A stretch of 64,000 nt of DNA from Alentia gelatinosa. Lineage: Eukaryota > Annelida > Polychaeta > Phyllodocida > Polynoidae. The DNA lies in contig OX465580.1 in the NCBI GenBank assembly GCA_950022655.1, positions 123,177,016-123,241,015 of the forward strand, read 5' to 3'. This document shows, piece after piece, positions 20,001 to 64,000 of the stretch (the stretch's first letter is position 1; each line of letters starts with the position of its first letter). Below the pieces are notes generated by a model. The model was not told the DNA's origin, did no database searches, and saw nothing but the letters and a program-made list of their open reading frames with translations. The position numbers and the translations under genes were made by a program.

Positions 20001-20026
20001 GGTCCCTCTAACACCAGCTGACATAT

Positions 20027-20098
20027 GGCTTGTTGGTCTAGGGGTATGATTCTCGCTTTGGGTGCGAGAGGTCCCGGGTTCAAATTCCGGACAAGCCC
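20027..20098 (+). tRNA. tRNA-Pro-TGG: tRNA-Pro(TGG), unit 1 slot 1, first gene of the array
   Basis: This type delivers proline, mainly at CCA and CCG codons. The cloverleaf is complete: acceptor GGCTTGT pairs with ACAAGCC without mismatch, anticodon stem CTCGC/GCGAG closes loop TTTGGGT, T stem CCGGG/CCCGG closes TTCAAAT, and the discriminator is C as in animal tRNA-Pro. No intron. Here position 60 is T instead of C, leaving a G-T wobble in the T stem. The natural upstream neighbour (an AGG gene) is missing because the array begins 26 nt upstream. Confidence 0.92.
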
Positions 20099-20374
20099 AT
20101 TAGCTTTTTACTTGTCCATATCCTGCTCACTACTTGATTAACAAGTGTAAGAGAAAGGCATAATATACAGGAGAATCCAAAGCGTTTGTTAAACTCTGAA
20201 AAAAGTGTGTGAAAATCAATAAAGCCTATTTGAAGAAGGATCGGTTATGGCAATAAAGAGGTTCTTCAGGTCATGTGACAAGTGAAACTTTCCTGAATGT
20301 CTTAAGGCATTCTCGCCGTTAAGAGACATACTGCCTTGGAGTATCCTTGCCTGTATAGCTACTGCTACCAAGTA

Positions 20375-20417
20375 ATTGGGGCAGGAGAGGTCCTGGGTTC
20401 CAATGCTGGACAAGCCC
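20375..20417 (+). pseudogene. tRNA-Pro 3'-half relic, unit 1
   Basis: The 43 nt align with positions 30-72 of tRNA-Pro(AGG) without gaps: anticodon loop decayed to ATTGGGGC, then GAGAGGTCCTGGGTTC and CTGGACAAGCCC. The 5' half (acceptor, D arm, A box) is unrecognisable, so no cloverleaf can form. The downstream flank AGTTAGTTTTAT equals that of AGG genes. It is retained in every unit that has the segment. Confidence 0.9.
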
Positions 20418-20506
20418 AGTTAGTTTTATACTTCAGTATATCCAATCGAAGATCATGATGGTCACAACCAAAATTTTGCTGGTGTCTCTATCACCAACTG
20501 ACATAT

Positions 20507-20578
20507 GGCTTGTTGGTCTAGGGGTATGATTCTAGCTTTGGGTGCGAGAGGTCCCGGGTTCAAATCCCGGACAAGCCC
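20507..20578 (+). tRNA. tRNA-Pro-TGG: tRNA-Pro(TGG), unit 1 slot 2
   Basis: Standard body except A28 (TCTAGC), giving an A-G mismatch in the middle of the anticodon stem. Function may be reduced. Confidence 0.75.
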
Positions 20579-21286
20579 ATTAGCTTTTTACTTGTCCATA
20601 TCCAGCTAGCTACTTAATCCATACATGGCCAAAAGGCCTGCAGGCATTATATACCTGGGGGAGGGGAATGCTTACAGGCATTCACAATGAATTCAAGCGT
20701 TTCTCAATATACACAGGAAGATTCAAAGTCTTTATATAATCTATGAAAAATTATGTGTGAAAATCAATGTGGTACATTTGAAGAAATCACTTACGGCAAT
20801 GAATAGACTCTTTAGGTCATGTGAAAAGTATAACCTTTCTTGAATGTCTTAAGGCATTATCGCAATCCAGAGAGATACTGCTCTGAGGAATCCTGCCCCT
20901 GTAGCTACTCACACCAGCAATTTGCTCGCCTAGAAAGGATGAATGTCCTCATCCTGATCATGTGCTGAAATTCTCAGCGGTGATTGAGTTGTGATGTAAT
21001 ATTCATGACTCTTCAACTAGTGGAAATAAGTTTGATACTGGGACTTATGGCAACCATATAGTAAACTAGACTCTGTATGTTCAAGCAAAGAAAGATTTAC
21101 TTCAGAAGAAACTTGAAAAATGCTATGTCTTGATATGAATGCCTTCGTGCAGACTGCAGTTTTATATGATTGCTCGACAAAAACAGGGTTCTAAAGCTGT
21201 CAAATATGTTGGCTTGCAATATAACACCATATCTCAAGAAAACTAGAAGCAGGCGATAGAGTTTCAAGGGGAGCTGTTCTTTGTGA

Positions 21287-21358
21287 GGCTTGTTGGTCTA
21301 GGGGTACGATTCTCGCTTCGGGTGCGAGAGGTCCCGGGTTCAATTCCCGGGCAAGTCC
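21287..21358 (+). tRNA. tRNA-Pro-CGG: tRNA-Pro(CGG), unit 1 slot 3
   Basis: The anticodon CGG reads CCG. Slot 3 genes differ from TGG genes by C33 in the anticodon and T58 in the T loop (TTCAATT). This copy also has C21, G65 and T70. The last two make G-T wobbles in the acceptor stem, so the fold survives. It is the most diverged CGG gene in the window, at the array edge. Confidence 0.85.
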
Positions 21359-21967
21359 AGTATTTTATCCCATACAGACTAGCCATGAAACTCAGAATCT
21401 TCTCAGGATACATTTCAACTGAAAACCTATTTCAATATTCTCTGCAATATATATGCTGAGCTCATATATGCCTGTTTTGCATTGGAATCCATCGTTCTAG
21501 AAGAGCTGCAAATATCACAGCTCACACTTTCTAATATGAGAGAAGATCTGTAGATGTATATAGCTCGATAGCAGCAACTACATATTGTCCAATACTCTAT
21601 TGTTTTGTCTCACAGTGTAAGAGGAAAGCATATCATGGATGGAGGTAAAGGTGATACAAAGTTATTTCCTGTGATATCATGATGGAGTGCTTTAGTGTTG
21701 CATCAGATGATAGTCAAATCTCTAATTAATATGTCAAACTTCCCGAGATGATATACAAACCAATCTGCTGAATTCAGATAACCGAGGCAATATGTTCTTC
21801 CATGTCTCTTTTTTCCACAAATGGGTACATTTGATTCTCTATGCTTCATGTCCTATATCAGAGAAATATCTACATACATACATACACCCAGTCTGTATTC
21901 TTGATACCATAATTGCAGTCATAGCAATATTTGGTGAAATTTCTTAGCCATCGCAGTAGCCAGCACA

Positions 21968-22039
21968 GGCTTGTTGGTCTAGGGGTATGATTCTCGCTTA
22001 GGGTGCGAGAGGTCCCGGGTTCAAATCCCGGACAAGCCC
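21968..22039 (+). tRNA. tRNA-Pro-AGG: tRNA-Pro(AGG), unit 1 slot 4
   Basis: The anticodon AGG, with A34 expected to be edited to inosine in animals, would read CCU, CCC and CCA. It is identical to the TGG gene except for the anticodon base at position 33. All stems pair perfectly. It is one of only five AGG genes here without any deviation. Confidence 0.95.
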
Positions 22040-22045
22040 AGTTAG

Positions 22046-22049
22046 TTTT
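22046..22049 (+). terminator. pol III terminator of slot 4 genes
   Basis: T4 begins 7 nt after the AGG tRNA, in AGTTAGTTTTATG. Confidence 0.85.
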
Positions 22050-22134
22050 ATGCTCATGTTTATGGAATGGAAAGTATTGACGGCCACAACCAATATTTAC
22101 TGGTCCCTCTAACACCAGCTGACATATGGCTTGT

Positions 22135-22147: not shown

Positions 22148-22177
22148 TGATTCTCGCTTTGGGTGCGAGAGGTCCCG

Positions 22178-24203: not shown

Positions 24204-24275
24204 GGCTTGTTGGTCTAGGGGTATGATTCTCGCTTTGGGTGCGAGAGGTCCCGGGTTCAAATCCCGGACAAGCCC
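24204..24275 (+). tRNA. tRNA-Pro-TGG: tRNA-Pro(TGG), unit 3 slot 1
   Basis: Consensus body and terminator. Confidence 0.97.
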
Positions 24276-24551
24276 ATTAGCTTTTTACTTGTCCATATCC
24301 TGCTCACTACTTGATTAACAAGTGTAAGAGAAAAGCATAATATACAGGAGAATCCAAAGCGTTTGTTAAACTCTGAAAAAAGTGTGTGAAAATCAATAAA
24401 GCCTATTTGAAGAAGGATCGGTTATGGCAATAAAGAGGTTCTTCAGGTCATGTGACAAGTGAAACTTTCCTGAATGTCTTAAGGCATTCTCGCCGTTAAG
24501 AGACATACTGCCTTGGAGTATCCTTGCCTGTATAGCTACTGCTACCAAGTA

Positions 24552-24594
24552 ATTGGGGCAGGAGAGGTCCTGGGTTCCAATGCTGGACAAGCCC
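24552..24594 (+). pseudogene. tRNA-Pro relic, unit 3
   Basis: 3'-half remnant, unchanged from unit 1. Confidence 0.9.
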
Positions 24595-24683
24595 AGTTAG
24601 TTTTATACTTCAGTATATCCAATCGAAGATCATGATGGTCACAACCAAAATTTTGCTGGTGTCTCTATCACCAACTGACATAT

Positions 24684-24755
24684 GGCTTGTTGGTCTAGGG
24701 GTATGATTCTCGCTTTGGGTGCGAGAGGTCCCGGGTTCAAATCCCGGACAAGCCC
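24684..24755 (+). tRNA. tRNA-Pro-TGG: tRNA-Pro(TGG), unit 3 slot 2
   Basis: Consensus body. Confidence 0.97.
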
Positions 24756-25463
24756 ATTAGCTTTTTACTTGTCCATATCCAGCTAGCTACTTAATCCATA
24801 CATGGCCAAAAGGCCTGCAGGCATTATATACCTGGGGGAGGGGAATGCTTACAGGCATTCACAATGAATTCAAGCGTTTCTCAATATACACAGGAAGATT
24901 CAAAGTCTTTATATAATCTATGAAAAATTATGTGTGAAAATCAATGTGGTACATTTGAAGAAATCACTTACGGCAATGAATAGACTCTTTAGGTCATGTG
25001 AAAAGTATAACCTTTCTTGAATGTCTTAAGGCATTATCGCAATCCAGAGAGATACTGCTCTGAGGAATCCTGCCCCTGTAGCTACTCACACCAGCAATTT
25101 GCTCGCCTAGAAAGGATGAATGTCCTCACCCTGATCATGTGCTGAAATTCTCAGCGGTGATTGAGTTGTGATGTAATATTCATGACTCTTCAACTAGTGG
25201 AAATAAGTTTGATACTGGGACTTATGGCAACCATATAGTAAACTAGACTCTGTATGTTCAAGCAAAGAAAGATTTACTTCAGAAGAAACTTGAAAAATGC
25301 TATGTCTTGATATGAATGCCTTCGTGCAGACTGCAGTTTTATATGATTGCTCGACAAAAACAGGGTTCTAAAGCTGTCAAATATGTTGGCTTGCAATATA
25401 ACACCATATCTCAAGAAAACTAGAAGCAGGCGATAGAGTTTCAAGGGGAGCTTTTCTTTGTGA

Positions 25464-25535
25464 GGCTTGTTGGTCTAGGGGTATGATTCTCGCTTCGGGT
25501 GCGAGAGGTCCCAGGTTCAATTCCCGGACAAGCCC
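25464..25535 (+). tRNA. tRNA-Pro-CGG: tRNA-Pro(CGG), unit 3 slot 3
   Basis: A50 replaces G in the T stem (CCAGG), an A-C mismatch. The same variant marks slot 3 of units 10, 12, 15 and 17, together with AGCTTTTCTTTG just upstream. Confidence 0.85.
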
Positions 25536-26144
25536 AGTATTTTATCCCATACAGACTAGCCATGAAACTCAGAATCTTCTCAGGATACATTTCAACTGAA
25601 AACCTATTTCAATATTCTCTGCAATATATATGCTGAGCTCATATATGCCTGTTTTGCATTGGAATCCATCGTTCTAGAAGAGCTGCAAATATCACAGCTC
25701 ACACTTTCTAATATGAGAGAAGATCTGTAGATGTATATAGCTCGATAGCAGCAACTACATATTGTCCAATACTCTATTGTTTTGTCTCACAGTGTAAGAG
25801 GAAAGCATATCATGGATGGAGGTAAAGGTGATACAAAGTTATTTCCTGTGATATCATGATGGAGTGCTTTAGTGTTGCATCAGATGATAGTCAAATCTCT
25901 AATTAATATGTCAAACTTCCCGAGATGATATACAAACCAATCTGCTGAATTCAGATAACCGAGGCAATATGTTCTTCCATGTCTCTATTTTCCACAAATG
26001 GATACATTTGATTCTCTATGCTTCATGTCCTATATCAGAGAAATATCTACATACATACATACACCCAGTCTGTATTCTTGATACCATAATTGCAGTCATA
26101 GCAATATTTGGTGAAATTTCTTAGCCATCGCAGTAGCCAGCACA

Positions 26145-26216
26145 GGCTTGTTGGTCTAGGGGTATGATTCTCGCTTAGGGTGCGAGAGGTCCCGGGTTCA
26201 AATCCCGGACAAGCCC
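26145..26216 (+). tRNA. tRNA-Pro-AGG: tRNA-Pro(AGG), unit 3 slot 4
   Basis: Consensus AGG gene. Confidence 0.96.
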
Positions 26217-26304
26217 AGTTAGTTTTATGCTCATGTTTATGGAATGGAAAGTATTGACGGCCACAACCAATATTTACTGGTCCCTCTAACACCAGCTGAC
26301 ATAT

Positions 26305-49736: not shown

Positions 49737-49779
49737 ATTGGGGCAGGAGAGGTCCTGGGTTCCAATGCTGGACAAGCCC
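49737..49779 (+). pseudogene. tRNA-Pro relic, unit 15
   Basis: 3'-half remnant. Confidence 0.9.
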
Positions 49780-49868
49780 AGTTAGTTTTATACTTCAGTA
49801 TATCCAATCGAAGATCATGATGGTCACAACCAAAATTTTGCTGGTGTCTCTTTCACCAACTGACATAT

Positions 49869-49940
49869 GGCTTGTTGGTCTAGGGGTATGATTCTCGCTT
49901 TGGGTGAGAGAGGTCCCGGGTTCAAATCCCGGACAAGCCC
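49869..49940 (+). tRNA. tRNA-Pro-TGG: tRNA-Pro(TGG), unit 15 slot 2
   Basis: A39 anticodon-stem mismatch; block copy of 39,370. Confidence 0.75.
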
Positions 49941-50648: not shown

Positions 50649-50720
50649 GGCTTGTTGGTCTAGGGGTATGATTCTCGCTTCGGGTGCGAGAGGTCCCAGG
50701 TTCAATTCCCGGACAAGCCC
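50649..50720 (+). tRNA. tRNA-Pro-CGG: tRNA-Pro(CGG), unit 15 slot 3
   Basis: A50 variant; block copy of 40,150. Confidence 0.85.
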
Positions 50721-51329
50721 AGTATTTTATCCCATACAGACTAGCCATGAAACTCAGAATCTTCTCAGGATACATTTCAACTGAAAACCTATTTCAATAT
50801 TCTCTGCAATATATATGCTGAGCTCATATATGCCTGTTTTGCATTGGAATCCATCGTTCTAGAAGAGCTGCAAATATCACAGCTCACACTTTCTAATATG
50901 AGAGAAGATCTGTAGATGTATATAGCTCGATAGCAGCAACTACATATTGTCCAATACTCTATTGTTTTGTCTCACAGTGTAAGAGGAAAGCATATCATGG
51001 ATGGAGGTAAAGGTGATACAAAGTTATTTCCTGTGATATCATGATGGAGTGCTTTAGTGTTGCATCAGATGATAGTCAAATCTCTAATTAATATGTCAAA
51101 CTTCCCGAGATGATATACAAACCAATCTGCTGAATTCAGATAACCGAGGCAATATGTTCTTCCATGTCTCTATTTTCCACAAATGGATACATTTGATTCT
51201 CTATGCTTCATGTCCTATATCAGAGAAATATCTACATACATACATACACCCAGTCTGTATTCTTGATACCATAATTGCAGTCATAGCAATATTTGGTGAA
51301 ATTTCTTAGCCATCGCAGTAGCCAGCACA

Positions 51330-51401
51330 GGCTTGTTGGTCTAGGGGTATGATTGTCGCTTAGGGTGCGAGAGGTCCCGGGTTCAAATCCCAGACAAGCC
51401 C
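51330..51401 (+). tRNA. tRNA-Pro-AGG: tRNA-Pro(AGG), unit 15 slot 4
   Basis: G26 and A63; block copy of 40,831. Confidence 0.7.
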
Positions 51402-51489
51402 AGTTAGTTTTATGCTCATGTTTATGGAATGGAAAGTATTGACGGCCACAACCAATATTTACTGGTCCCTCTAACACCAGCTGACATAT

Positions 51490-51561
51490 GGCTTGTTGGT
51501 CTAGGGGTATGATTCTCGCTTTGGGTGCGAGAGGTCCCGGGTTCAAATCCCAGACAAGCCC
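51490..51561 (+). tRNA. tRNA-Pro-TGG: tRNA-Pro(TGG), unit 16 slot 1
   Basis: A63; block copy of 40,991, T6 terminator included. Confidence 0.82.
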
Positions 51562-51838
51562 ATTAGCTTTTTTACTTGTCCATATCCTGCTCACTACTTG
51601 ATTAACAAGTGTAAGAGAAAAGCATAATATACAGGGGAATCCAAAGCGTTTGTTAAACTCTGAAAAAAGTGTGTGAAAATCAATAAAGCCTATTTGAAGA
51701 AGGATCGGTTATGGCAATAAAGAGGTTCTTCAGGTCATGTGACAAGTGAAACTTTCCTGAATGTCTTAAGGCATTCTCGCCGTTAAGAGACATACTGCCT
51801 TGGAGTATCCTTGCCTGTATAGCTACTGCTACCAAGTA

Positions 51839-51881
51839 ATTGGGGCAGGAGAGGTCCTGGGTTCCAATGCTGGACAAGCCC
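51839..51881 (+). pseudogene. tRNA-Pro relic, unit 16
   Basis: 3'-half remnant. Confidence 0.9.
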
Positions 51882-51970
51882 AGTTAGTTTTATACTTCAG
51901 TATATCCAATCGAAGATCATGATGGTCACAACCAAAATTTTGCTGGTGTCTCTATCACCAACTGACATAT

Positions 51971-52042
51971 GGCTTGTTGGTCTAGGGGTATGATTCTCGC
52001 TTTGGGTGCGAGAGGTCCCGGGTTCAAATCCCGGACAAGCCC
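51971..52042 (+). tRNA. tRNA-Pro-TGG: tRNA-Pro(TGG), unit 16 slot 2
   Basis: Consensus body. Confidence 0.97.
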
Positions 52043-52750
52043 ATTAGCTTTTTACTTGTCCATATCCAGCTAGCTACTTAATCCATACATGGCCAAAAGG
52101 CCTGCAGGCATTATATACCTGGGGGAGGGGAATGCTTACAGGCATTCACAATGAATTCAAGCGTTTCTCAATATACACAGGAAGATTCAAAGTCTTTACA
52201 TAATCTATGAAAAATTATGTGTGAAAATCAATGTGGTACATTTGAAGAAATCACTTACGGCAATGAATAGACTCTTTAGGTCATGTGAAAAGTATAACCT
52301 TTCTTGAATGTCTTAAGGCATTATCGCAATCCAGAGAGATACTGCTCTGAGGAATCCTGCCCCTGTAGCTACTCACACCAGCAATTTGCTCGCCTAGAAA
52401 GGATGAATGTCCTCATCCTGATCATGTGCTGAAATTCTCAGCGGTGATTGAGTTGTGATGTAATATTCATGACTCTTCAACTAGTGGAAATAAGTTTGAT
52501 ACTGGGACTTATGGCAACCATATAGTAAACTAGACTCTGCATGTTCAAGCAAAGAAAGATTTACTTCAGAAGAAACTTGAAAAATGCTATGTCTTGATAT
52601 GAATGCCTTCGTGCAGACTGCAGTTTTATATGATTGCTCGACAAAAACAGGGTTCTAAAGCTGTCAAATATGTTGGCTTGCAAAATAACACCATATCTCA
52701 AGAAAACTATAAGCAGGCGATAGAGTTTCAAGGGGAGCTGTTCTTTGTGA

Positions 52751-52822
52751 GGCTTGTTGGTCTAGGGGTATGATTCTCGCTTTGGGTGCGAGAGGTCCCG
52801 GGTTCAATTCCCGGACAAGCCC
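52751..52822 (+). tRNA. tRNA-Pro-TGG: tRNA-Pro(TGG) in slot 3, unit 16 (anticodon changed from CGG)
   Basis: Block copy of the anticodon-switched gene at 42,252. Confidence 0.93.
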
Positions 52823-53431
52823 AGTATTTTATCCCATACAGACTAGCCATGAAACTCAGAATCTTCTCAGGATACATTTCAACTGAAAACCTATTTCAAT
52901 ATTCTCTGCAATATATATGTTGAGCTCATATATGCCTGTTTTGCATTGGAATCCATCGTTCTAGAAGAGCTGCAAATATCACAGCTCACACTTTCTAATA
53001 TGAGAGAAGATCTGTAGATGTATATAGCTCGATAGCAGCAACTACATATTGTCCAATACTCTATTGTTTTGTCTCACAGTGTAAGAGGAAAGCATATCAT
53101 GGATGGAGGTAAAGGTGATACAAAGTTATTTCCTGTGATATCATGATGGAGTGCTTTAGTGTTGCATCAGATGATAGTCAAATCTCTAATTAATATGTCA
53201 AACTTCCCGAGATGATATACAAACCAATCTGCTGAATTCAGATAACCGAGGCAATATGTTCTTCCATGTCTCTATTTTCCACAAATGGGTACATTTGATT
53301 CTCTATGCTTCATGTCCTATATCAGAGAAATATCTACATACATACATACACCCAGGCTGAATTCTTGATACCATAATTGCAGTCATAGCAATATTTGGTG
53401 AAATTTCTTAGCCATCGCAGTAGCCAGCACA

Positions 53432-53503
53432 GGCTTGTTGGTCTAGGGGTATGATTCTCGTTTAGGGTGCGAGAGGTCCCGGGTTCAAATCCTGGACAAG
53501 CCA
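53432..53503 (+). tRNA. tRNA-Pro-AGG: tRNA-Pro(AGG), unit 16 slot 4, altered discriminator
   Basis: Block copy of 42,933 (T62, discriminator A) with an additional T30, which turns the pair next to the anticodon loop into a T-G wobble. This is one of the two differences noticed between the 10,499-bp copies. Confidence 0.7.
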
Positions 53504-53591
53504 AGTTAGTTTTATGCTCATGTTTATGGAATGGAAAGTATTGACGGCCACAACCAATATTTACTGGTCCCTCTAACACCAGCTGTCATAT

Positions 53592-53663
53592 GGCTTGTTG
53601 GTCTAGGGGTATGATTCTCGCTTTGGGTGCGAGAGGTCCCGGGTTCAAATCCCGGACAAGCCC
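53592..53663 (+). tRNA. tRNA-Pro-TGG: tRNA-Pro(TGG), unit 17 slot 1
   Basis: Consensus body; block copy of 43,093. Confidence 0.97.
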
Positions 53664-53939
53664 ATTAGCTTTTTACTTGTCCATATCCTGCTCACTACTT
53701 GATTAACAAGTGTAAGAGAAAAGCATAATATACAGGGGAATCCAAAGCGTTTGTTAAACTCTGAAAAAAGTGTGTGAAAATCAATAAAGCCTATTTGAAG
53801 AAGGATCAGTTATGGCAATAAAGAGGTTCTTCAGGTCATGTGACAAGTGAAACTTTCCTGAATGTCTTAAGGCATTCTCGCCGTTAAGAGACATACTGCC
53901 TTGGAGTATCCTTGCCTGTATAGCTACTGCTACCAAGTA

Positions 53940-53982
53940 ATTGGGGCAGGAGAGGTCCTGGGTTCCAATGCTGGACAAGCCC
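53940..53982 (+). pseudogene. tRNA-Pro relic, unit 17
   Basis: 3'-half remnant. Confidence 0.9.
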
Positions 53983-54071
53983 AGTTAGTTTTATACTTCA
54001 GTATATCCAATCGAAGATCATGATGGTCACAACCAAAATTTTGCTGGTGTCTCTATCACCAACTGACATAT

Positions 54072-54143
54072 GGCTTGTTGGTCTAGGGGTATGATTCTCG
54101 CTTTGGGTGCGAGAGGTCCCGGGTTCAAATCCCGGACAAGCCC
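54072..54143 (+). tRNA. tRNA-Pro-TGG: tRNA-Pro(TGG), unit 17 slot 2
   Basis: Consensus body. Confidence 0.97.
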
Positions 54144-54849
54144 ATTAGCTTTTTACTTGTCCATATCCAGCTAGCTACTTAATCCATACATGGCCAAAAG
54201 GCCTGCAGGCATTATATACCTGGGGGAGGGGAATGCTTACAGGCATTCACAATGAATTCAAGCATTTCTCAATATACACAGGAAGATTCAAAGTCTTTAT
54301 ATAATCTATGAAAAATTATGTGTGAAAATCAATGTGGTACATTTGAAGAAATCACTTACGGCAATGAATAGACTCTTTAGGTCATGTGAAAAGTATAACC
54401 TTTCTTGAATGTCTTAAGGCATTATCGCAATCCAGAGAGATACTGCTCTGAGGAATCCTGCCCCTGTAGCTACTCACACCAGCAATTTGCTCGCCTAGAA
54501 AGGATGAATGTCCTCACCCTGATCATGTGCTGAAATTCTCAGCGGTGATTGAGTTGTGATGTAATATTCATGACTCTTCAACTAGTGGAAATAAGTTTGA
54601 TACTGGGACTTATGGCAACCATATAGTAAACTAGACTGTATGTTCAAGCAAAGAAAGATTTACTTCAGAAGAAACTTGAAAAATGCTATGTCTTGATATG
54701 AATGCCTTCGTGCAGACTGCAGTTTTATATGATTGCTCGACAAAAACAGGGTTCTAAAGCTGTCAAATATGTTGGCTTGCAATATAACACCATATCTCAA
54801 GAAAACTAGAAGCAGGCGATAGAGTTTCAAGGGGAGCTTTTCTTTGTGA

Positions 54850-54921
54850 GGCTTGTTGGTCTAGGGGTATGATTCTCGCTTAGGGTGCGAGAGGTCCCAG
54901 GTTCAATTCCCGGACAAGCCC
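54850..54921 (+). tRNA. tRNA-Pro-AGG: tRNA-Pro(AGG) in slot 3, unit 17 (anticodon changed from CGG)
   Basis: Block copy of 44,351, with A50 and T58. Confidence 0.85.
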
Positions 54922-55526
54922 AGTATTTTATCCCATACAGACTAGCCATGAAACTCAGAATCTTCTCAGGATACATTTCAACTGAAAACCTATTTCAATA
55001 TTCTCTGCAATATATATGCTGAGCTCATATATGCCTGTTTTGCATTGGAATCCATCGTTCTAGAAGAGCTGCAAATATCACAGCTCACACTTTCTAATAT
55101 GAGAGAAGATCTGTAGATGTATATAGCTCGATAGCAGCAACTACATATTGTCCAATACTCTATTGTTTTGTCTCACAGTGTAAGAGGAAAGCATATCATG
55201 GATGGAGGTAAAGGTGATAGAAAGTTATTTCCTGTGATATCATGATGGAGTGCTTTAGTGTTGCATCAGATGATAGTCAAATCTCTAATTAATATGTCAA
55301 ACTTCCCGAGATGATATACAAACCAATCTGCTGAATTCAGATAACCGAGGCAATATGTTCTTCCATGTCTCTATTTTCCACAAATGGGTACATTTGATTC
55401 TCTATGCTTCATGTCCTATATCAGAGAAATATCTACATACATACACCCAGTCTGTATTCTTGATACCATAATTGCAGTCATAGCAATATTTGGTGAAATT
55501 TCTTAGCCATCGCAGTAGCCAGCACA

Positions 55527-55598
55527 GGCTTGTTGGTCTAGGGCTATGATTGTCGCTTAGGGTGCGAGAGGTCCCGGGTTCAAATCCCGGACAAGCCC
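55527..55598 (+). tRNA. tRNA-Pro-AGG: tRNA-Pro(AGG), unit 17 slot 4, A-box mutant
   Basis: C18 and G26; block copy of 45,028. Confidence 0.6.
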
Positions 55599-55686
55599 AG
55601 TTAGTTTTATGCTCATGTTTATGGAATGGAAAGTATTGACGGCCACAACCAATATTTACTGGTCCCTCTAACACCAGCTGACATAT

Positions 55687-55758
55687 GGCTTGTTGGTCTA
55701 GGGGTATGATTCTCGCTTTGGGTGCGAGAGGTCCCGGGTTCAAATCCCGGACAAGCCC
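55687..55758 (+). tRNA. tRNA-Pro-TGG: tRNA-Pro(TGG), unit 18 slot 1
   Basis: Consensus body; last gene inside the second 10,499-bp copy. Confidence 0.97.
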
Positions 55759-56034
55759 ATTAGCTTTTTACTTGTCCATATCCTGCTCACTACTTGATTA
55801 ACAAGTGTAAGAGAAAAGCATAATATACAGGGGAATCCAAAGCGTTTGTTAAACTCTGAAAAAAGTGTGTGAAAATCAATAAAGCCTATTTGAAGAAGGA
55901 TCGGTTATGGCAATAAAGAGGTTCTTCAGGTCATGTGACAAGTGAAACTTTCCTGAATGTCTTAAGGCATTCTCGCCGTTAAGAGACATACTGCCTTGGA
56001 GTATCCTTGCCTGTATAGCTACTGCTACCAAGTA

Positions 56035-56077
56035 ATTGGGGCAGGAGAGGTCCTGGGTTCCAATGCTAGACAAGCCC
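56035..56077 (+). pseudogene. tRNA-Pro relic, unit 18
   Basis: 3'-half remnant with one further change (CTAGAC instead of CTGGAC), the only private mutation I see among the 20 relics. Confidence 0.9.
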
Positions 56078-56166
56078 AGTTAGTTTTATACTTCAGTATA
56101 TCCAATCGAAGATCATGATGGTCACAACCAAAATTTTGCTGGTGTCTCTATCACCAACTGACATAT

Positions 56167-56238
56167 GGCTTGTTGGTCTAGGGGTATGATTCTCGCTTTG
56201 GGTGCGAGAGGTCCCGGGTTCAAATCCCGGACAAGCCC
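56167..56238 (+). tRNA. tRNA-Pro-TGG: tRNA-Pro(TGG), unit 18 slot 2
   Basis: Consensus body. Confidence 0.97.
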
Positions 56239-56946
56239 ATTAGCTTTTTACTTGTCCATATCCAGCTAGCTACTTAATCCATACATGGCCAAAAGGCCTG
56301 CAGGCATTATATACCTGGGGGAGGGGAATGCTTACAGGCATTCACAATGAATTCAAGCGTTTCTCAATATACACAGGAAGATTCAAAGTCTTTATATAAT
56401 CTATGAAAAATTATGTGTGAAAATCAATGTGGTACATTTGAAGAAATCACTTACGGCAATGAATAGACTCTTTAGGTCATGTGAAAAGTATAACCTTTCT
56501 TGAATGTCTTAAGGCATTATCGCAATCCAGAGAGATACTGCTCTGAGGAATCCTGCCCCTGTAGCTACTCACACCAGCAATTTGCTCGCCTAGAAAGGAT
56601 GAATGTCCTCATCCTGATCATGTGCTGAAATTCTCAGCAGTGATTGAGTTGTGATGTAATATTCATGACTCTTCAACTAGTGGAAATAAGTTTGATACTG
56701 GGACTTATGGCAACCATATAGTAAACTAGACTCTGTATGTTCAAGCAAAGAAAGATTTACTTCAGAAGAAACTTGAAAAATGCTATGTCTTGATATGAAT
56801 GCCTTCGTGCAGACTGCAGTTTTATATGATTGCTTGACAAAAACAGGGTTCTAAAGCTGTCAAATATGTTGGCTTGCAAAATAACACCATATCTCAAGAA
56901 AACTAGAAGCAGGCAATAGAGTTTCAAGGGGAGCTGTTCTTTGTGA

Positions 56947-57018
56947 GGCTTGTTGGTCTAGGGGTATGATTCTCGCTTCGGGTGCGAGAGGTCCCGGGTT
57001 CAATTCCCGGACAAGCCC
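56947..57018 (+). tRNA. tRNA-Pro-CGG: tRNA-Pro(CGG), unit 18 slot 3
   Basis: Consensus CGG gene. Confidence 0.97.
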
Positions 57019-57627
57019 AGTATTTTATCCCATACAGACTAGCCATGAAACTCAGAATCTTCTCAGGATACATTTCAACTGAAAACCTATTTCAATATTC
57101 TCTGCAATATATATGCTGAGCTCATATATGCCTGTTTTGCATTGGAATCCATCGTTCTAGAAGAGCTGCAAATATCACAGCTCACACTTTCTAATATGAG
57201 AGAAGATCTGTAGATGTATATAGCTCGATAGCAGCAACTACATATTGTCCAATACTCTATTGTTTTGTCTCACAGTGTAAGAGGAAAGCATATCATGGAT
57301 GGAGGTAAAGGTGATACAAAGTTATTTCCTGTGATATCATGATGGAGTGCTTTAGTGTTGCATCAGATGATAGTCAAATCTCTAATTAATATGTCAAACT
57401 TCCCGAGATGATATACAAACCAATCTGCTGAATTCAGATAACCGAGGCAATATGTTCTTCCATGTCTCTATTTTCCACAAATGGATACATTTGATTCTCT
57501 ATGCTTCATGTCCTATATCAGAGAAATATCTACATACATACATACACCCAGTCTGTATTCTTAATACCATAATTGCAGTCATAGCAATATTTGGTGAAAT
57601 TTCTTAGCCATCGCAGTAGCCAGCACA

Positions 57628-57699
57628 GGCTTGTTGGTCTAGGGGTATGATTCTCGCTTAGGGTGCGAGAGGTCCCAGGTTCAAATCCCGGACAAGCCC
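57628..57699 (+). tRNA. tRNA-Pro-AGG: tRNA-Pro(AGG), unit 18 slot 4
   Basis: A50 T-stem mismatch, here in an AGG gene rather than a slot 3 gene. Confidence 0.8.
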
Positions 57700-57787
57700 A
57701 GTTAGTTTTATGCTCATGTTTATGGAATGGAAAGTATTGACGGCCACAACCAATATTTACTGGTCCCTCTAACACCAGCTGACATAT

Positions 57788-57859
57788 GGCTTGTTGGTCT
57801 AGGGGTATGATTCTCGCTTTGGGTGCGAGAGGTCCCGGGTTCAAATCCCGGACAAGCCC
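57788..57859 (+). tRNA. tRNA-Pro-TGG: tRNA-Pro(TGG), unit 19, slot 1/slot 2 fusion
   Basis: Consensus body with slot 1 upstream flank and slot 2 downstream flank (CATATCCAGCTAGCTAC). The 480 bp that normally separate the two genes, relic included, are missing. The gene itself is intact because the crossover fell in identical sequence. Confidence 0.96.
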
Positions 57860-58508
57860 ATTAGCTTTTTACTTGTCCATATCCAGCTAGCTACTTAATC
57901 CATACATGGCCAAAAGGCCTGCAGGCATTATATACCTTGGGGAGGGGAATGCTTACAGGCATTCACAATGAATTCAAGGGTTTCTCAATATACACAGGAA
58001 GATTCAAAGTCTTTATATAATCTATGAAAAATTATGTGTGAAAATCAATGTGGTACATTTGAAGAAATCACTTACGGCAATGAATAGACTCTTTAGGTCA
58101 TGTGAAAAGTATAACCTTTCTTGAATGTCTTAAGGTATTATCGCAATCCAGAGAGATACTGCTCTGAGGAATCCTGCCCCTGTAGCTACTCACACCAGCA
58201 ATTTGCTCGCCTAGAAAGGATGAATGTCCTCATCCTGATCATGTGCTGAAATTCTCAGCGGTGATTGAGTTGTGATGTAATATTCATGACTCTTCAACTA
58301 GTGGAAATAAGTTTGATACTGGGACTTATGGCAACCATATAGTAAACTAGACTCTGTATGTTCAAGCAAAGAAAGATTTACTTCAGAAGAAACTTGAAAA
58401 ATGCTATGTCTTGATATGAATGCCTTCGTGCAGACTGCAGTTTTATATGATTGCTCGACAAAAACAGGGTTCTAAAGCTGTCAAATATGTTGGCTTGCAA
58501 AATAACAC

Positions 58509-58938
58509 CATATCTCAAGAAAACTAGAAGCAGGCGATAGAGTTTCAAGGGGAGCTGTTCTTTGTGAGGCTTGTTGGTCTAGGGGTATGATTCTCGCTTC
58601 GGGTGCGAGAGGTCCCGGGTTCAATTCCCGGACAAGCCCAGTATTTTATCCCATACAGACTAGCCATGAAACTCAGAATCTTCTCAGGATACATTTCAAC
58701 TGAAAACCTATTTCAATATTCTCTGCAATATATATGCTGAGCTCATATATGCCTGTTTTGCATTGGAATCCATCGTTCTAGAAGAGCTGCAAATATCACA
58801 GCTCACACTTTCTAATATGAGAGAAGATCTGTAGATGTATATAGCTCGATAGCAGCAACTACATATTGTCCAATACTCTATTGTTTTGTCTCACAGTGTA
58901 AGAGGAAAGCATATCATGGATGGAGGTAAAGGTGATAC
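58509..58938 (+). repeat. 430-bp tandem duplication, copy 1
   Basis: It begins at CATATCTCAAGAAAAC and ends in GGTGATAC. It contains one CGG gene. Confidence 0.93.
58568..58639 (+). tRNA. tRNA-Pro-CGG: tRNA-Pro(CGG), unit 19 slot 3, first copy
   Basis: Consensus gene inside the first copy of a 430-bp tandem duplication. Confidence 0.97.
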
Positions 58939-59368
58939 CATATCTCAAGAAAACTAGAAGCAGGCGATAGAGTTTCAAGGGGAGCTGTTCTTTGTGAGGC
59001 TTGTTGGTCTAGGGGTATGATTCTCGCTTCGGGTGCGAGAGGTCCCGGGTTCAATTCCCGGACAAGCCCAGTATTTTATCCCATACAGACTAGCCATGAA
59101 ACTCAGAATCTTCTCAGGATACATTTCAACTGAAAACCTATTTCAATATTCTCTGCAATATATATGCTGAGCTCATATATGCCTGTTTTGCATTGGAATC
59201 CATCGTTCTAGAAGAGCTGCAAATATCACAGCTCACACTTTCTAATATGAGAGAAGATCTGTAGATGTATATAGCTCGATAGCAGCAACTACATATTGTC
59301 CAATACTCTATTGTTTTGTCTCACAGTGTAAGAGGAAAGCATATCATGGATGGAGGTAAAGGTGATAC
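58939..59368 (+). repeat. 430-bp tandem duplication, copy 2
   Basis: GGTGATAC jumps directly to CATATCTCAAG at 58,938/58,939. The joined sequences share only about 2 bp, so the event is not ordinary unequal crossing-over. Confidence 0.93.
58998..59069 (+). tRNA. tRNA-Pro-CGG: tRNA-Pro(CGG), unit 19 slot 3, second copy
   Basis: Identical to the gene 430 bp upstream; extra CGG gene created by the tandem duplication. Confidence 0.97.
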
Positions 59369-59678
59369 AAAGTTATTTCATGTGATATCATGATGGAGTG
59401 CTTTAGTGTTGCATCAGATGATAGTCAAATCTCTAATTAATATGTCAAACTTCCCTAGATGATATACAAACCAATCTGCTGAATTCAGATAACCGAGGCA
59501 ATATGTTCTTCCATGTCTCTATTTTCCACAAATGGGTACATTTGATTCTCTATGCTTCATGTCCTATATCAGAGAAATATGTACATACATACATACACCC
59601 AGTCTGTATTCTTGATACCATAATTGCAGTCATAGCAATATTTGGTGAAATTTCTTAGCCATCGCAGTAGTTAGCACA

Positions 59679-59750
59679 GGCTTGTTGGTCTAGGGGTATG
59701 ATTCTCGCTTAGGGTGCGAGAGGTCCCGGGTTCAAATCCCAGACAAGCCC
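59679..59750 (+). tRNA. tRNA-Pro-AGG: tRNA-Pro(AGG), unit 19 slot 4
   Basis: A63 variant. It is followed 42 nt later by a deletion junction, so no TGG gene comes after it. Confidence 0.82.
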
Positions 59751-59785
59751 AGTTAGTTTTATGCTCTTGTTTATGGAATGGAAAG

Positions 59786-59799
59786 TATTGACCATTAGC
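59786..59799 (+). other. junction of a 597-bp deletion
   Basis: GTATTGAC (normally followed by GGCCACAACC) joins CATTAGCTTTTT, which normally follows a slot 2 gene. Against the regular unit, 597 bp including both TGG genes and the relic are missing. Only about 1 bp is shared at the join. Confidence 0.9.
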
Positions 59800-60501
59800 T
59801 TTTTACTTGTCCATATCCAGCTAGCTACTTAATCCATACATGGCCAAAAGGCCTGCAGGCATTATATACCTGGGGGAGGGGAATGCTTACAGGCATTCAC
59901 AATGAATTCAAGGGTTTCTCAATATACACAGGAAGATTCAAAGTCTTTATATAATCTATGAAAAATGATGTGTGAAAATCAATGTGGTACATTTGAAGAA
60001 ATCACTTACGGCAATGAATAGACTCTTTAGGTCATGTGAAAAGTATAACCTTTCTTGAATGTCTTAAGGCATTATCGCAATCCAGAGAGATACTGCTCTG
60101 AGGAATCCTGCCCCTGTAGCTACTCACACCAGCAATTTGCTCGCCTCGAAAGGATGAATGTCCTCATCCTGATCATGTGCTGAAATTCTCAGCGGTGATT
60201 GAGTTGTGATGTAATATTCATGACTCTTCAACTAGTGGAAATAAGTTTGATACTGGGACTTATGGCAACCATATAGTAAACTAGACTCTGTATGTTCAAG
60301 CAAAGAAAGATTTACTTCAGAAGAAACTTGAAAAATGCTATGTCTTGATATGAATGCCTTCGTGCAGACTGCAGTTTTATATGATTGCTCGACAAAAACA
60401 GGGTTCTAAAGCTGTCAAATATGTTGGCTTGCAATATAACACCATATCTCAAGAAAACTAGAAGCAGGCGATAGAGTTTCAAGGGGAGCTGTTCTTTGTG
60501 A

Positions 60502-60573
60502 GGCTTGTTGGTCTAGGGGTATGATTCTCGCTTCGGGTGCGAGAGGTCCCGGGTTCAATTCCCGGACAAGCCC
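60502..60573 (+). tRNA. tRNA-Pro-CGG: tRNA-Pro(CGG), after the deletion
   Basis: Consensus CGG gene. Its partial unit has no TGG genes. Confidence 0.97.
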
Positions 60574-61175
60574 AGTATTTTATCCCATACAGACTAGCCA
60601 TGAAACTCAGAATCTTCTCAGGATACATTTCAACTGAAAACCTATTTCAATATTCTCTGCAATATATATGCTGAGCTCATATATGCCTGTTTTGCATTGG
60701 AATCCATCGTTCTAGAAGAGCTGCAAATATCACAGCTCACACTTTCTAATATGAGAGAAGATCTGTAGATGTATATAGCTCGATAGCAGCAACTACATAT
60801 TGTCCAATACTCTATTGTTTTGTCTCACAGTGTAAGAGGAAAGCATATCATGGATGGAGGTAAAGGTGATACAAAGTTATTTCCTGTGATATCATGATGG
60901 AGTGCTTTAGTGTTGCATCAGATGATAGTCAAATCTCTAATTAATATGTCAAACTTCCCGAGATGATATACAAACCAATCTGCTGAATTCAGATAACCGC
61001 GGCAATATGTTCTTCCATGTCTCTATTTTCCACAAATGGGTGCATTTGATTCTCTATGTCCTATATCAGAGAAATATCTACATACATACATACACCCAGT
61101 CTGTATTCTTGATACCATAATTGCAGTCATAGCAATATTTGGTGAAATTTCTTAGCCATCGCAGTAGCCAGCACA

Positions 61176-61247
61176 GGCTTGTTGGTCTAGGGGTATGATT
61201 GTCGCTTAGGGTGCGAGAGGTCCCGGGTTCAAATTCCGGACAAGCCC
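61176..61247 (+). tRNA. tRNA-Pro-AGG: tRNA-Pro(AGG), before unit 20
   Basis: G26 anticodon-stem mismatch and T60 wobble in the T stem. The spacer lost 7 bp (CTATGTCC, about 61,058). Confidence 0.75.
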
Positions 61248-61335
61248 AGTTAGTTTTATGCTCATGTTTATGGAATGGAAAGTATTGACGGCCACAACCA
61301 ATATTTACTGGTCCCTCTAACACCAGCTGACATAT

Positions 61336-61407
61336 GGCTTGTTGGTCTAGGGGTATGATTCTCGCTTTGGGTGCGAGAGGTCCCGGGTTCAAATCCCGGA
61401 CAAGCCC
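61336..61407 (+). tRNA. tRNA-Pro-TGG: tRNA-Pro(TGG), unit 20 slot 1
   Basis: Consensus body. Confidence 0.97.
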
Positions 61408-61683
61408 ATTAGCTTTTTACTTGTCCATATCCTGCTCACTACTTGATTAACAAGTGTAAGAGAAAAGCATAATATACAGGAGAATCCAAAGCGTTTGTTA
61501 AACTCTGAAAAAAGTGTGTGAAAATCAATAAAGCCTATTTGAAGAAGGATCGGTTATGGCAATAAAGAGGTTCTTCAGGTCATGTGACAAGTGAAACTTT
61601 CCTGAATGTCTTAAGGCATTCTCGCCGTTAAGAGACATACTGCCTTGGAGTATCCTTGCCTGTATAGCTACTGCTACCAAGTA

Positions 61684-61726
61684 ATTGGGGCAGGAGAGGT
61701 CCTGGGTTCCAATGCTGGACAAGCCC
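61684..61726 (+). pseudogene. tRNA-Pro relic, unit 20
   Basis: 3'-half remnant. Confidence 0.9.
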
Positions 61727-61815
61727 AGTTAGTTTTATACTTCAGTATATCCAATCGAAGATCATGATGGTCACAACCAAAATTTTGCTGGTGTCTCTTT
61801 CACCAACTGACATAT

Positions 61816-61887
61816 GGCTTGTTGGTCTAGGGGTATGATTCTCGCTTTGGGTGCGAGAGGTCCCGGGTTCAAATCCCGGACAAGCCC
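61816..61887 (+). tRNA. tRNA-Pro-TGG: tRNA-Pro(TGG), unit 20 slot 2
   Basis: Consensus body. Confidence 0.97.
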
Positions 61888-62595
61888 ATTAGCTTTTTAC
61901 TTGTCCATATCCAGCTAGCTACTTAATCCATACATGGCCAAAAGGCCTGCAGGCATTATATACCTGGGGGAGGGGAATGCTTACAGGCATTCACAATGAA
62001 TTCAAGCGTTTCTCAATATACACAGGAAGATTCAAAGTCTTTATATAATCTATGAAAAATTATGTGTGAAAATCAATGTGGTACATTTGAAGAAATCACT
62101 TACGGCAATGAATAGACTCTTTAGGTCATGTGAAAAGTATAACCTTTCTTGAATGTCTTAAGGCATTATCGCAATCCAGAGAGATACTGCTCTGAGGAAT
62201 CCTGCCCCTGTAGCTACTCACACCAGCAATTTGCTCGCCTAGAAAGGATGAATGTCCTCATCCTGATCATGTGCTGAAATTCTCAGCAGTGATTGAGTTG
62301 TGATGTAATATTCATGACTCTTCAACTAGTGGAAATAAGTTTGATACTGGGACTTATGGCAACCATATAGTAAACTAGACTCTGTATGTTCAAGCAAAGA
62401 AAGATTTACTTCAGAAGAAACTTGAAAAATGCTATGTCTTGATATGAATGCCTTCGTGCAGACTGCAGTTTTATATGATTGCTCGACAAAAACAGGGTTC
62501 TAAAGCTGTCAAATATGTTGGCTTGCAATATAACACCATATCTCAAGAAAACTAGAAGCAGCCGATAGAGTTTCAAGGGGAGCTGTTCTTTGTGA

Positions 62596-62667
62596 GGCTT
62601 GTTGGTCTAGGGGTATGATTCTCGCTTCGGGTGCGAGAGGTCCCGGGTTCAATTCCCGGACAAGCCC
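62596..62667 (+). tRNA. tRNA-Pro-CGG: tRNA-Pro(CGG), unit 20 slot 3
   Basis: Consensus CGG gene. Confidence 0.97.
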
Positions 62668-63276
62668 AGTATTTTATCCCATACAGACTAGCCATGAAAC
62701 TCAGAATCTTCTCAGGATACATTTCAACTGAAAACCTATTTCAATATTCTCTGCAATATATATTCTGAGCTCATATATGCCTGTTTTGCATTGGAATCCA
62801 TCGTTCTAGAAGAGCTGCAAATATCACAGCTCACACTTTCTAATATGAGAGAAGATCTGTAGATGTATATAGCTCGATAGCAGCAACTACATATTGTCCA
62901 ATACTCTATTGTTTTGTCTCACAGTGTAAGAGGAAAGCATATCATGGATTGAGGTAAAGGTGATACAAAGTTATTTCCTGTGATATCATGATGGAGTGCT
63001 TTAGTGTTGCATCAGATGATAGTCAAATCTCTAATTAATATGTCAAACTTCCCGAGATGATATACAAACCAATCTGCTGAATTCAGATAACCGAGGCAAT
63101 ATGTTCTTCCATGTCTCTATTTTCCACAAATGGATACATTTGATTCTCTATGCTTCATGTCCTATATCAGAGAAATATCTACATACATACATACACCCAG
63201 TCTGTATTCTTGATACCATAATTGCAGTCATAGCAATATTTGGTGAAATTTCTTAGCCATCGCAGTAGCCAGCACA

Positions 63277-63348
63277 GGCTTGTTAGTCTAGGGGTATGAT
63301 TCAAGCTTAGGGTGCGAGAGGTCCCGGGTTCAAATCCCCGACAAGCCC
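63277..63348 (+). pseudogene. degenerate tRNA-Pro(AGG), unit 20 slot 4
   Basis: A10 disrupts the first D-stem pair and the A box. A27 and A28 break two adjacent anticodon-stem pairs, and C63 breaks a T-stem pair. With four substitutions in 72 nt it is the most damaged full-length copy and probably non-functional. Confidence 0.75.
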
Positions 63349-63436
63349 AGTTAGTTTTATGCTCATGTTTATGGAATGGAAAGTATTGACGGCCACAACC
63401 AACATTTACTGATCCCTCTAACACCAGCTGACATAT

Positions 63437-63508
63437 GGCTTGTTGGTCTAGGGGTATGATTCTCGCTTTGGGTGCGAGAGGTCCCGGGTTCAAATCCCAG
63501 ACAAAACC
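63437..63508 (+). pseudogene. degenerate tRNA-Pro(TGG), unit 21 slot 1
   Basis: The 3' end reads ACAAAACC, so A69 and A70 break acceptor pairs 2 and 3, and A63 breaks a T-stem pair. 3'-end processing and charging would probably fail. A box, B box and terminator remain. Confidence 0.7.
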
Positions 63509-63784
63509 ATTAGCTTTTTACTTGTCCATATCCTGCTCACTACTTGATTAACAAGTGTAAGAGAAAAGCATAATATACAGGGGAATCCAAAGCGTTTGTT
63601 AAACTCTGAAAAAAGTGTGTGAAAATCAATAAAGCCTATTTGAAGAAGGATCGGTTATGGCAATAAAGAGGTTCTTCAGGTCATGTGACAAGTGAAACTT
63701 TCCTGAATGTCTTAAGGCATTCTCGCCGTTAAGAGACATACTGCCTTGGAGTATCCTTGCCTGTATAGCTACTGCTACCAAGTA

Positions 63785-63827
63785 ATTGGGGCAGGAGAGG
63801 TCCTGGGTTCCAATGCTGGACAAGCCC
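63785..63827 (+). pseudogene. tRNA-Pro relic, unit 21
   Basis: 3'-half remnant. Confidence 0.9.
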
Positions 63828-63916
63828 AGTTAGTTTTATACTTCAGTATATCCAATCGAAGATCATGATGGTCACAACCAAAATTTTGCTGGTGTCTCTT
63901 TCACCAACTGACATAT

Positions 63917-63988
63917 GGCTTGTTGGTCTAGGGGTATGATTCTCGCTTTGGGTGCGAGAGGTCCCGGGTTCAAATCCCGGACAAGCCC
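63917..63988 (+). tRNA. tRNA-Pro-TGG: tRNA-Pro(TGG), unit 21 slot 2
   Basis: Consensus body; the window ends 12 nt after it, inside its terminator region. Confidence 0.97.
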
Positions 63989-64000
63989 ATTAGCTTTTTA

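What the first reader, a model, noticed from the sequence alone, without database searches (positions are those of the whole stretch)
20001..64000. A 44-kb array devoted to one amino acid: 84 tRNA-Pro genes in fixed 2:1:1 anticodon ratio
Every regular unit carries two TGG, one CGG and one AGG tRNA-Pro gene, all on one strand, each with A box, B box and T4-T5 terminator. Tandem tRNA arrays are known in some animals and protists, but those I recall mix several amino acids; one holding all three proline isoacceptors and nothing else is striking. It raises the question of an unusual proline demand (for example collagen-like or silk-like proteins) or of a tRNA cluster that spreads as a satellite.
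Basis: partly seen in the sequence, partly recalled or inferred. Interest (0 to 1): 0.85.

Follow-up and report, generated by a model that had tools for sequence, protein, structure and literature searches.

The report
Giant proline-tRNA gene array, scale worm
A scale worm carries a quarter-megabase tandem array of several hundred proline tRNA genes that look real and were guarded by selection in the long run, yet whose individual copies now drift and decay; proline-only tRNA arrays are already known from plants, so it is a striking animal example of a known kind.

Summary
The window holds 84 tRNA-Pro genes, all on the + strand, in 2.1-kb units. Anticodons are 43 TGG: 23 AGG: 18 CGG; 2:1:1 holds in 15 of 19 regular units. 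The window shows only the left sixth: in its genome (COX1 points to a polynoid scale worm) the array spans 256.8 kb. A unit marker occurs 126 times, 124 of them placed in the array; about 480 genes by extrapolation. It grew by nested tandem duplication. A relative 80-88% alike on another chromosome has near-identical tRNA bodies: 1 fixed tRNA change against 82 in spacers, although inside the array tRNA columns vary at least as much as spacers. I read this as long-term selection with nearly neutral single copies. 33 of 84 window genes fail a strict intactness rule, 18 of 23 for AGG. Proline-only mixed-anticodon clusters are common in plants (PMC12652284, PMC11700998, passages); size, animal host and the selection contrast are new here. 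Expression and proline demand were not testable.

The parts
20001..64000 (+). visible part of the tRNA-Pro macrosatellite (84 genes); it continues to the right to C2:123453851, total 256.8 kb
24204..26304 (+). a regular 2101-bp unit: TGG1 (24204), decayed AGG relic (about 24524-24595), TGG2 (24684), CGG (25464), AGG (26145)
24524..24595 (+). relic of an AGG gene: 3' half and AGG-type trailer conserved, 5' half eroded; lies 160 bp before TGG2 as AGG lies 160 bp before TGG1
   Evidence: alignment; sub-repeat blast (87.6% over 234 bp)
20001..20026 (+). left boundary: array begins 26 bp before the first TGG gene; apart from this leader only a chance-like 21-bp match to the unit was found further left
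34689..45187 (+). five-unit block, copied in tandem at 45188-55686 (shift 10499)
   Evidence: 0-1 substitutions between paired units; 3 mismatches in 10,978 positions
35239..64000 (+). left part of a 33-kb block (to 68234 in joined coordinates) repeated in tandem at shift 32353, the second copy lying right of the window
   Evidence: at most 3 mismatches among readable bases over 32,997 positions
57788..61335 (+). rearranged stretch: TGG1 joined to the TGG2 position (480-bp loss), 430-bp tandem duplication carrying CGG, and a second internal junction
42252..42323 (+). gene in the CGG slot with a TGG anticodon (change at a CpG); same at 52751
44351..44422 (+). gene in the CGG slot with an AGG anticodon; same at 54850
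63277..63508 (+). two strongly damaged genes (AGG at 63277, TGG at 63437), three broken stem pairs each
   Evidence: 32.3 and 37.6 bits

Best explanation
It is a genuine multicopy tRNA-Pro gene family that has become a macrosatellite. Shown: a 2.1-kb unit with four tRNA-Pro genes (TGG, TGG, CGG, AGG) and one dead AGG relic is repeated about 126 times in one 257-kb block on one strand; parts of the unit are copies of one another (a doubled AGG-TGG pair); the block holds nested near-perfect tandem duplications and shortened repeats; a diverged sister array lies on another chromosome (no CGG gene was called in the 9 kb read, of which 282 bases read N); gene bodies are nearly unchanged between the two arrays while spacers diverged; within the large array gene bodies are as variable as spacers or more. 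Inferred: unequal exchange amplifies and homogenises the block; selection keeps the family as a whole able to make tRNA-Pro but is too weak per copy, at this copy number, to purge damaged copies; low CpG content and gene decay suggest that many copies are methylated and silent, as in the Arabidopsis clusters. Dispersed tRNA-Pro genes with a CTCG/CGAG acceptor stem exist elsewhere (three read) and may carry much of the ordinary supply.
For: 84 genes, one strand, 51 intact by strict rules. At most 27 substitutions between any two of 19 units of 2.1 kb (98.7% or more over aligned bases; indels up to 32 columns). 126 unit markers genome-wide, 0 on the other strand; 124 of them seen in the array, 120 in its first 244 kb and 4 in samples of the rest. 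Near-perfect duplications at shifts 10499 and 32353; CGG-slot spacings 2101 (66 of 122), 1621 (10), 1504 (9), 430 (3). The last unit is more diverged, 97.4-97.9%, as expected at an array edge. Sub-repeats inside the unit and AGG relic. Sister array on C12 and cluster on C5. Divergence of the C2 consensus from one C12 unit: tRNA 1 of 144 columns, spacer 82 of 611 (P = 3.6e-7); polymorphic within C2: 12 tRNA, 13 spacer; MK-type odds ratio 76, P = 2e-8; three further blocks give odds ratios 83, 56 and 57. Within the array: tRNA 20 of 288 variable, spacer and relic 42 of 1679; CGG gene 9 of 72 against flank 103 of 1077, P = 0.41, from 74 distinct segments. CpG observed/expected 0.29 in spacers, 0.60 in the left flank.
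Against: No expression, pol III occupancy or methylation data. Gene conversion restricted to tRNA bodies between loci could mimic purifying selection in the C2-C12 comparison, though the many tRNA variants inside the array speak against very efficient conversion. The MK-type test uses one sister locus and one consensus, and its four alignment blocks are not independent. The excess of tRNA variation in the window is partly CpG decay (stratified odds ratio 1.9, P = 0.046). Low CpG content is only an indirect sign of methylation, and a minisatellite in the left flank is as low.
Confidence: 0.68

Rival explanations
1. Dosage array: copy number was raised and is kept by selection because some stage or tissue needs much tRNA-Pro (for example collagen-like or other proline-rich secreted proteins).
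For: Long-term constraint on gene bodies; T-run after 82 of 84 genes and 58 of 84 with all 20 tested stem pairs formed; 98 of 123 CGG-slot genes in the first 244 kb are identical to the consensus. Precedent: the Arabidopsis Ser-Tyr-Tyr cluster is switched on in root-tip cells and its deletion alters a Ser/Tyr/Pro-rich glycoprotein there (PMC12308677, passages including the abstract).
Against: Within-array variation shows no constraint per copy. AGG copies are the most decayed, 5 of 23 intact, although A34 (inosine) is usually the main proline reader in animals (recalled). Two copies are called with Thr and Leu anticodons by ARAGORN, which would be harmful if strongly expressed (inference).
Confidence: 0.2
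2. Pure tRNA-derived satellite: the genes are passengers, silent, and the repeat spreads for its own sake.
For: Macrosatellite structure and nested duplications, tRNA variation not below spacer variation, CpG-poor spacers.
Against: Fixed differences between C2 and C12 arrays are almost absent in tRNA genes and common in spacers; A box, B box, stems and terminators are preserved in most copies of the window.
Confidence: 0.12
3. Assembly artefact: the array is real but its length and the 10.5-kb and 32.4-kb near-perfect duplications are inflated by the assembler.
For: At most 3 mismatches over 33 kb at shift 32353; no reads were available.
Against: Units outside those blocks differ by several substitutions and by indels, both edges pass into sequence without unit homology, and spacings vary, so a long array remains even if both blocks were collapsed.
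Confidence: 0.1

Closest known systems
Plant tRNA-Pro clusters (Arabidopsis P clusters; 100 tandem Pro clusters in 27 species in one survey of 50 plants)
   Same: Tandem, proline only, anticodons T/A/CGG, bodies that differ by few bases in the closest pairs
   Different: Passages read give runs of 3 to 10, and 25-27 in Arabidopsis (PMC11700998); PMC12652284 mentions tRNA clusters of up to 110 genes without saying which amino acid. Here about 126 units and several hundred genes in an annelid, with a multi-gene 2.1-kb unit and higher-order blocks
Arabidopsis Ser-Tyr-Tyr (SYY) cluster
   Same: Repeating unit with several tRNA genes; methylated and silent in most tissues, a model for how redundant arrays behave (PMC12308677, passages)
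   Different: Two amino acids, 27 repeats; expression and methylation measured there, not here
Human 1q23.3 tRNA macrosatellite (VNTR)
   Same: Long-unit tandem repeat with five tRNA genes per unit, about 98% unit identity, copy-number variable (PMC4041453, passages)
   Different: 7.3-kb unit, several amino acids (recalled), CTCF-bound; 9-43 units
Entamoeba tRNA arrays
   Same: tRNA genes held in tandem arrays (PMC2652664, start of abstract in the listing)
   Different: Almost all tRNA genes, up to 5 genes per unit, short tandem repeats between genes
Pike 5S rRNA gene arrays
   Same: Extreme amplification of a pol III gene in blocks (PMC5437419, passages)
   Different: There gene regions are more homogeneous than spacers and no significant pseudogenisation is reported; here gene bodies are as variable as spacers inside the array

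Membership tests
Tandem tRNA gene array | Head-to-tail repeats that each carry tRNA genes in one orientation | tested here: met
Tandem tRNA gene array | Genes keep cloverleaf, A box, B box and T-run terminator | tested here: met
   51 of 84 meet all strict rules; 58 of 84 fully paired; T-run in 82 of 84; 83 of 84 over Rfam gathering. 33 of 84 fail at least one rule
Tandem tRNA gene array | Transcription by pol III into mature tRNA | not testable with these tools
   no RNA or ChIP data
Homogeneous tRNA-Pro cluster as in plants | One amino acid, several isoacceptors with closely similar bodies | tested here: met
   TGG and AGG slot consensus differ at one base, CGG at two
Homogeneous tRNA-Pro cluster as in plants | Descent from the same ancestral cluster | not tested
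   convergent tandem duplication is the likely relation (inference); no plant alignment was made
Macrosatellite (definition recalled) | Kilobase unit, tens to hundreds of copies, high identity between copies | tested here: met
Silenced, methylated tRNA array (Arabidopsis type) | Dense CpG methylation and transcriptional silence | not testable with these tools
   only indirect: CpG observed/expected 0.29 against 0.60 in the left flank
tRNA-derived satellite without function | Gene bodies evolve like spacers | tested here: not met
   like spacers for variation inside the array, unlike spacers for divergence between arrays

The most novel reading that the evidence does not exclude
A dedicated proline-tRNA reserve: a tRNA-Pro lineage marked by its own acceptor pair (T5-A67), amplified to several hundred genes on one chromosome, silent in most cells and switched on in a tissue or stage that makes proline-rich protein, while the array also serves as a workshop in which isoacceptors arise by single anticodon changes and spread by block duplication.
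Probability: 0.15. Interest if true: 0.8.

Novelty: new variant of a known kind. Interest (0 to 1): 0.5.

Why it matters
Redundant tRNA genes are a long-standing puzzle: are they needed or carried along? This locus allows a clean test, because the array family and the dispersed genes read differ at an acceptor pair that tRNA sequencing can resolve, a diverged sister array gives a comparison, and more than a hundred units give a polymorphism sample. It already shows constraint between arrays and near-neutrality within one, a pattern unlike that reported for pike 5S arrays, where genes are more homogeneous than spacers (PMC5437419, passages).

Tried and rejected
Exact tRNA pattern in viral contigs: 0 matches. 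Pfam scan of 9 stop-to-stop frames of the left flank (18 were listed): no family, so no gene context there. Ectopic conversion among slots: three tRNA positions (28, 50, 63) vary in two slots each, but about 1.9 coincidences are expected by my own reckoning, so no claim. Transcription-associated mutagenesis: near flanks are not clearly more variable (leader 3 of 80, trailer 2 of 60, spacer 40 of 1607). A first CGG test counted rearranged units and pointed the other way (gene less variable than flank); one search dropped 4 of 78 distinct segments, all four from rearranged stretches, and the difference vanished. The AGG and TGG tests (gene more variable than flank, P 0.003 to 0.016) are not used: parts of the fetched DNA read N (18,874 of 200,000 bases), and the readable TGG/AGG copies outside the window are a biased sample; only the CGG slot and the window itself were used. 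In one search the second copies U14-U17 were dropped (15 of 19 units kept). A first search for long repeats with a global prefilter found one block only and was replaced. None of the nine paper searches listed, by title or start of abstract, a proline-only animal array; the library is partial. A genome-wide count of all tRNAs (RF00005) did not complete.
Full report
OBSERVATION. ARAGORN lists 84 tRNA genes in the window, all tRNA-Pro, all on the + strand, from 20027 to 63988. Rfam's tRNA model finds 83 of the 84 above its gathering score, the best at 56.6 bits. Anticodons are TGG 43, AGG 23, CGG 18. The array falls into 2.1-kb units; 19 are regular, and 15 of these have exactly two TGG, one CGG and one AGG gene. 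In the other four, two pairs of duplicates, the CGG slot holds a TGG or an AGG anticodon; one further stretch (57788-61335) is rearranged and the last unit is cut by the window's end. Chance needs no discussion: units differ by 0 to 27 substitutions and up to 32 gap columns over 2.1 kb.

SIZE. The window lies at C2:123177016-123241015 of an assembly of 1.234 Gb in 101 contigs. The 200 kb to its right were fetched, 18,874 bases of which read N, and samples beyond. The array ends at C2:123453851, so it spans 256.8 kb. A 47-base marker from the spacer between TGG2 and CGG occurs 126 times genome-wide with up to 3 mismatches, 0 on the other strand (its list was cut at 100 rows, all in the array). 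I saw 124 of the 126 in the array itself: 120 in the first 244 kb and 4 in samples of the rest; there is room for the other two between the samples. The stretches read of the C12 and C5 loci described below do not have it. The unit in this form is thus probably confined to this locus. CGG slots number 123 in the first 244 kb and AGG leaders 120. Allowing for deletions I estimate about 480 tRNA-Pro genes; this is extrapolation, because gene copies that read N cannot be counted.

ORGANISM. A COX1 gene lies on contig C101. Its protein is 97% identical to a sequence labelled Phyllodocida, and 90-91% identical to Branchipolynoe, Branchinotogluma and Alentiana; the taxonomy places Branchipolynoe and Alentiana in Polynoidae. 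I take the host to be a polynoid scale worm; the species is not known.

ANATOMY AND HISTORY. Within a unit AGG is followed after 160 bp by TGG1; 480 bp after TGG1 a second TGG stands in similar surroundings, and 160 bp before it lies a decayed gene whose 3' half and trailer match AGG. The two stretches are 87.6% alike over 234 bp, and further spacer pieces 76% alike over 204. So, by inference, an AGG-TGG pair was doubled, one AGG died, and a CGG gene whose flanks match neither completes the unit. A five-unit block is doubled at shift 10499 and a 33-kb block at shift 32353, each with at most 3 mismatches. CGG-slot spacings of 1621 (2101 minus 480; 10 of 122), 1504 (9) and 430 (3) record deletions and duplications. 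The last unit at the right edge is more diverged (97.4-97.9%). This is the signature of unequal exchange, inferred from structure.

RELATIVES IN THE SAME GENOME. Searches by anticodon found readable tRNA-Pro copies outside the array: 10 of 37 TGG matches and 4 of 25 AGG matches; no CGG copy with the usual T loop was readable (0 matches). These counts are floors. Three single genes (C1, C5, C13) have a CTCG/CGAG acceptor stem, and their flanks do not match the unit. A cluster on C12 (about 5.27-5.28 Mb; samples at 5.260 and 5.290 Mb show no unit sequence) has repeats of about 1.2 kb with AGG and TGG genes; its longer matches to the C2 unit are mostly 80-88% identical, some pieces as low as 72%; no CGG gene was called in the 9 kb read, of which 282 bases read N. 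Four TGG genes on C5 match the AGG-TGG piece at about 83%. Nearly all of the gene copies read at both loci share the CTTG/CAAG acceptor of the array. The array thus looks like the overgrown member of a small family that differs from the dispersed genes read.

SELECTION. Inside the array, for the window's units with second copies dropped (15 of 19), tRNA columns are variable in 20 of 288 and spacer columns (relic included) in 42 of 1679 (odds ratio 2.9, P = 3e-4). Part of this is CpG decay: stratified odds ratio 1.9, P = 0.046. Over the first 244 kb the CGG gene varies in 9 of 72 columns and its flanks in 103 of 1077 (P = 0.41; diversity 0.0056 against 0.0067; 74 distinct segments kept, 4 rearranged ones dropped). 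So no constraint is visible on single copies. Between the C2 consensus and a C12 unit the picture reverses: 1 fixed difference in 144 tRNA columns, 82 in 611 spacer columns; polymorphic in C2: 12 and 13. The MK-type odds ratio is 76 (P = 2e-8), and three other C12 blocks agree (83, 56, 57). The blocks are not independent and only one sister locus was used. Reading: mutations enter and drift in single copies, but the family's gene bodies hardly change over the long run. Conversion restricted to gene bodies is the alternative.

CONDITION OF THE GENES. With strict rules (20 stem pairs, A box, B box, discriminator C, T-run) 51 of 84 window genes are intact: TGG 34 of 43, CGG 12 of 18, AGG 5 of 23. 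In the first 244 kb 98 of 123 CGG-slot genes are identical, and 117 of 123 have a T-run of four. Anticodon changes recur: 8 of 123 CGG slots read TGG or AGG, duplicates included, and five TGG2 slots towards the right end read AGG; ARAGORN also calls one Thr (TGT) and one Leu (CAG) anticodon. CGG to TGG is what CpG decay at the anticodon would give. Spacer CpG is 0.29 of expectation, the left flank 0.60; 2.8% of 178 overlapping flank windows are at or below 0.30, those around the minisatellite. This hints at germline methylation, no more.

COMPARISON WITH THE KNOWN. Plant genomes have proline-only runs: 27 (or 25) tRNA-Pro genes on Arabidopsis chromosome 1 (PMC11700998, passages; PMC12652284, passages), and 166 of 220 tandem pairs of one amino acid with different anticodons are proline (PMC12652284 section 3.6). 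Arabidopsis P clusters are reported silent, while the Ser-Tyr-Tyr cluster is switched on in root-tip cells (PMC12308677, passages). In animals, 65% and 87% of tRNA genes and pseudogenes lie in clusters in zebrafish and stickleback, neighbouring genes in zebrafish being mostly of different amino acids (PMC2888827, passages), and a human macrosatellite has five tRNA genes per 7.3-kb unit (PMC4041453, passages). A database search with an antisense frame of two array genes gave 677 hits; of the 120 listed, 43 hold two or three tRNA-Pro genes in antisense by motif, and 36 of those mix anticodons, among them records of the spiders Trichonephila and Caerostris and the fishes Cirrhinus and Leuciscus. 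So small mixed proline clusters recur in animals too. What the nine paper searches did not list is a proline-only animal array of this size; the library is partial.

VERDICT. A real, very large and partly decaying tRNA-Pro array; a new variant of a known kind. A function in extra proline supply is possible and untested.

Noticed in passing
G000:C12:5271601-5280600 (L043): Second, diverged tRNA-Pro array (AGG and TGG, repeat about 1.2 kb, no CGG gene called in the stretch read), longer matches mostly 80-88% like the C2 unit.
   Followed up: partly
G000:C5:33369501-33372200 (L042): Four TGG tRNA-Pro genes in two pairs, about 83% like the AGG-TGG part of the unit; both genes of each pair read TGG.
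   Followed up: partly
window 10682-12890: Element-like block with GGCGTCAGAA-type inverted ends and a 63-bp minisatellite inside (10790-12276), followed by another insert; possibly a mobile element. Ends read by eye; minisatellite.
   Followed up: no
window 19650-20000: Degenerate CGGAAGAG-rich repeats directly abut the left edge of the array (by eye; in part).
   Followed up: no
window 15165-15241: Uninterrupted run of 38.5 TA dinucleotides.
   Followed up: no
window 16311-16430: Imperfect inverted repeat with a GGCGAAGCCGAGTG motif, looks like a short hairpin-type element (by eye).
   Followed up: no
joined coordinates 104077 and 144453 (window plus right extension): Array copies whose anticodons are called Thr (TGT) and Leu (CAG) on a tRNA-Pro body; they could mistranslate if expressed and charged with proline.
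   Followed up: partly
(protein database): Catalogued proteins, some from sequenced spiders and fishes, are antisense translations of tRNA-Pro genes, hence probably spurious (118 of the 120 listed carry the antisense motif); several records reveal tandem tRNA-Pro genes.
   Followed up: partly
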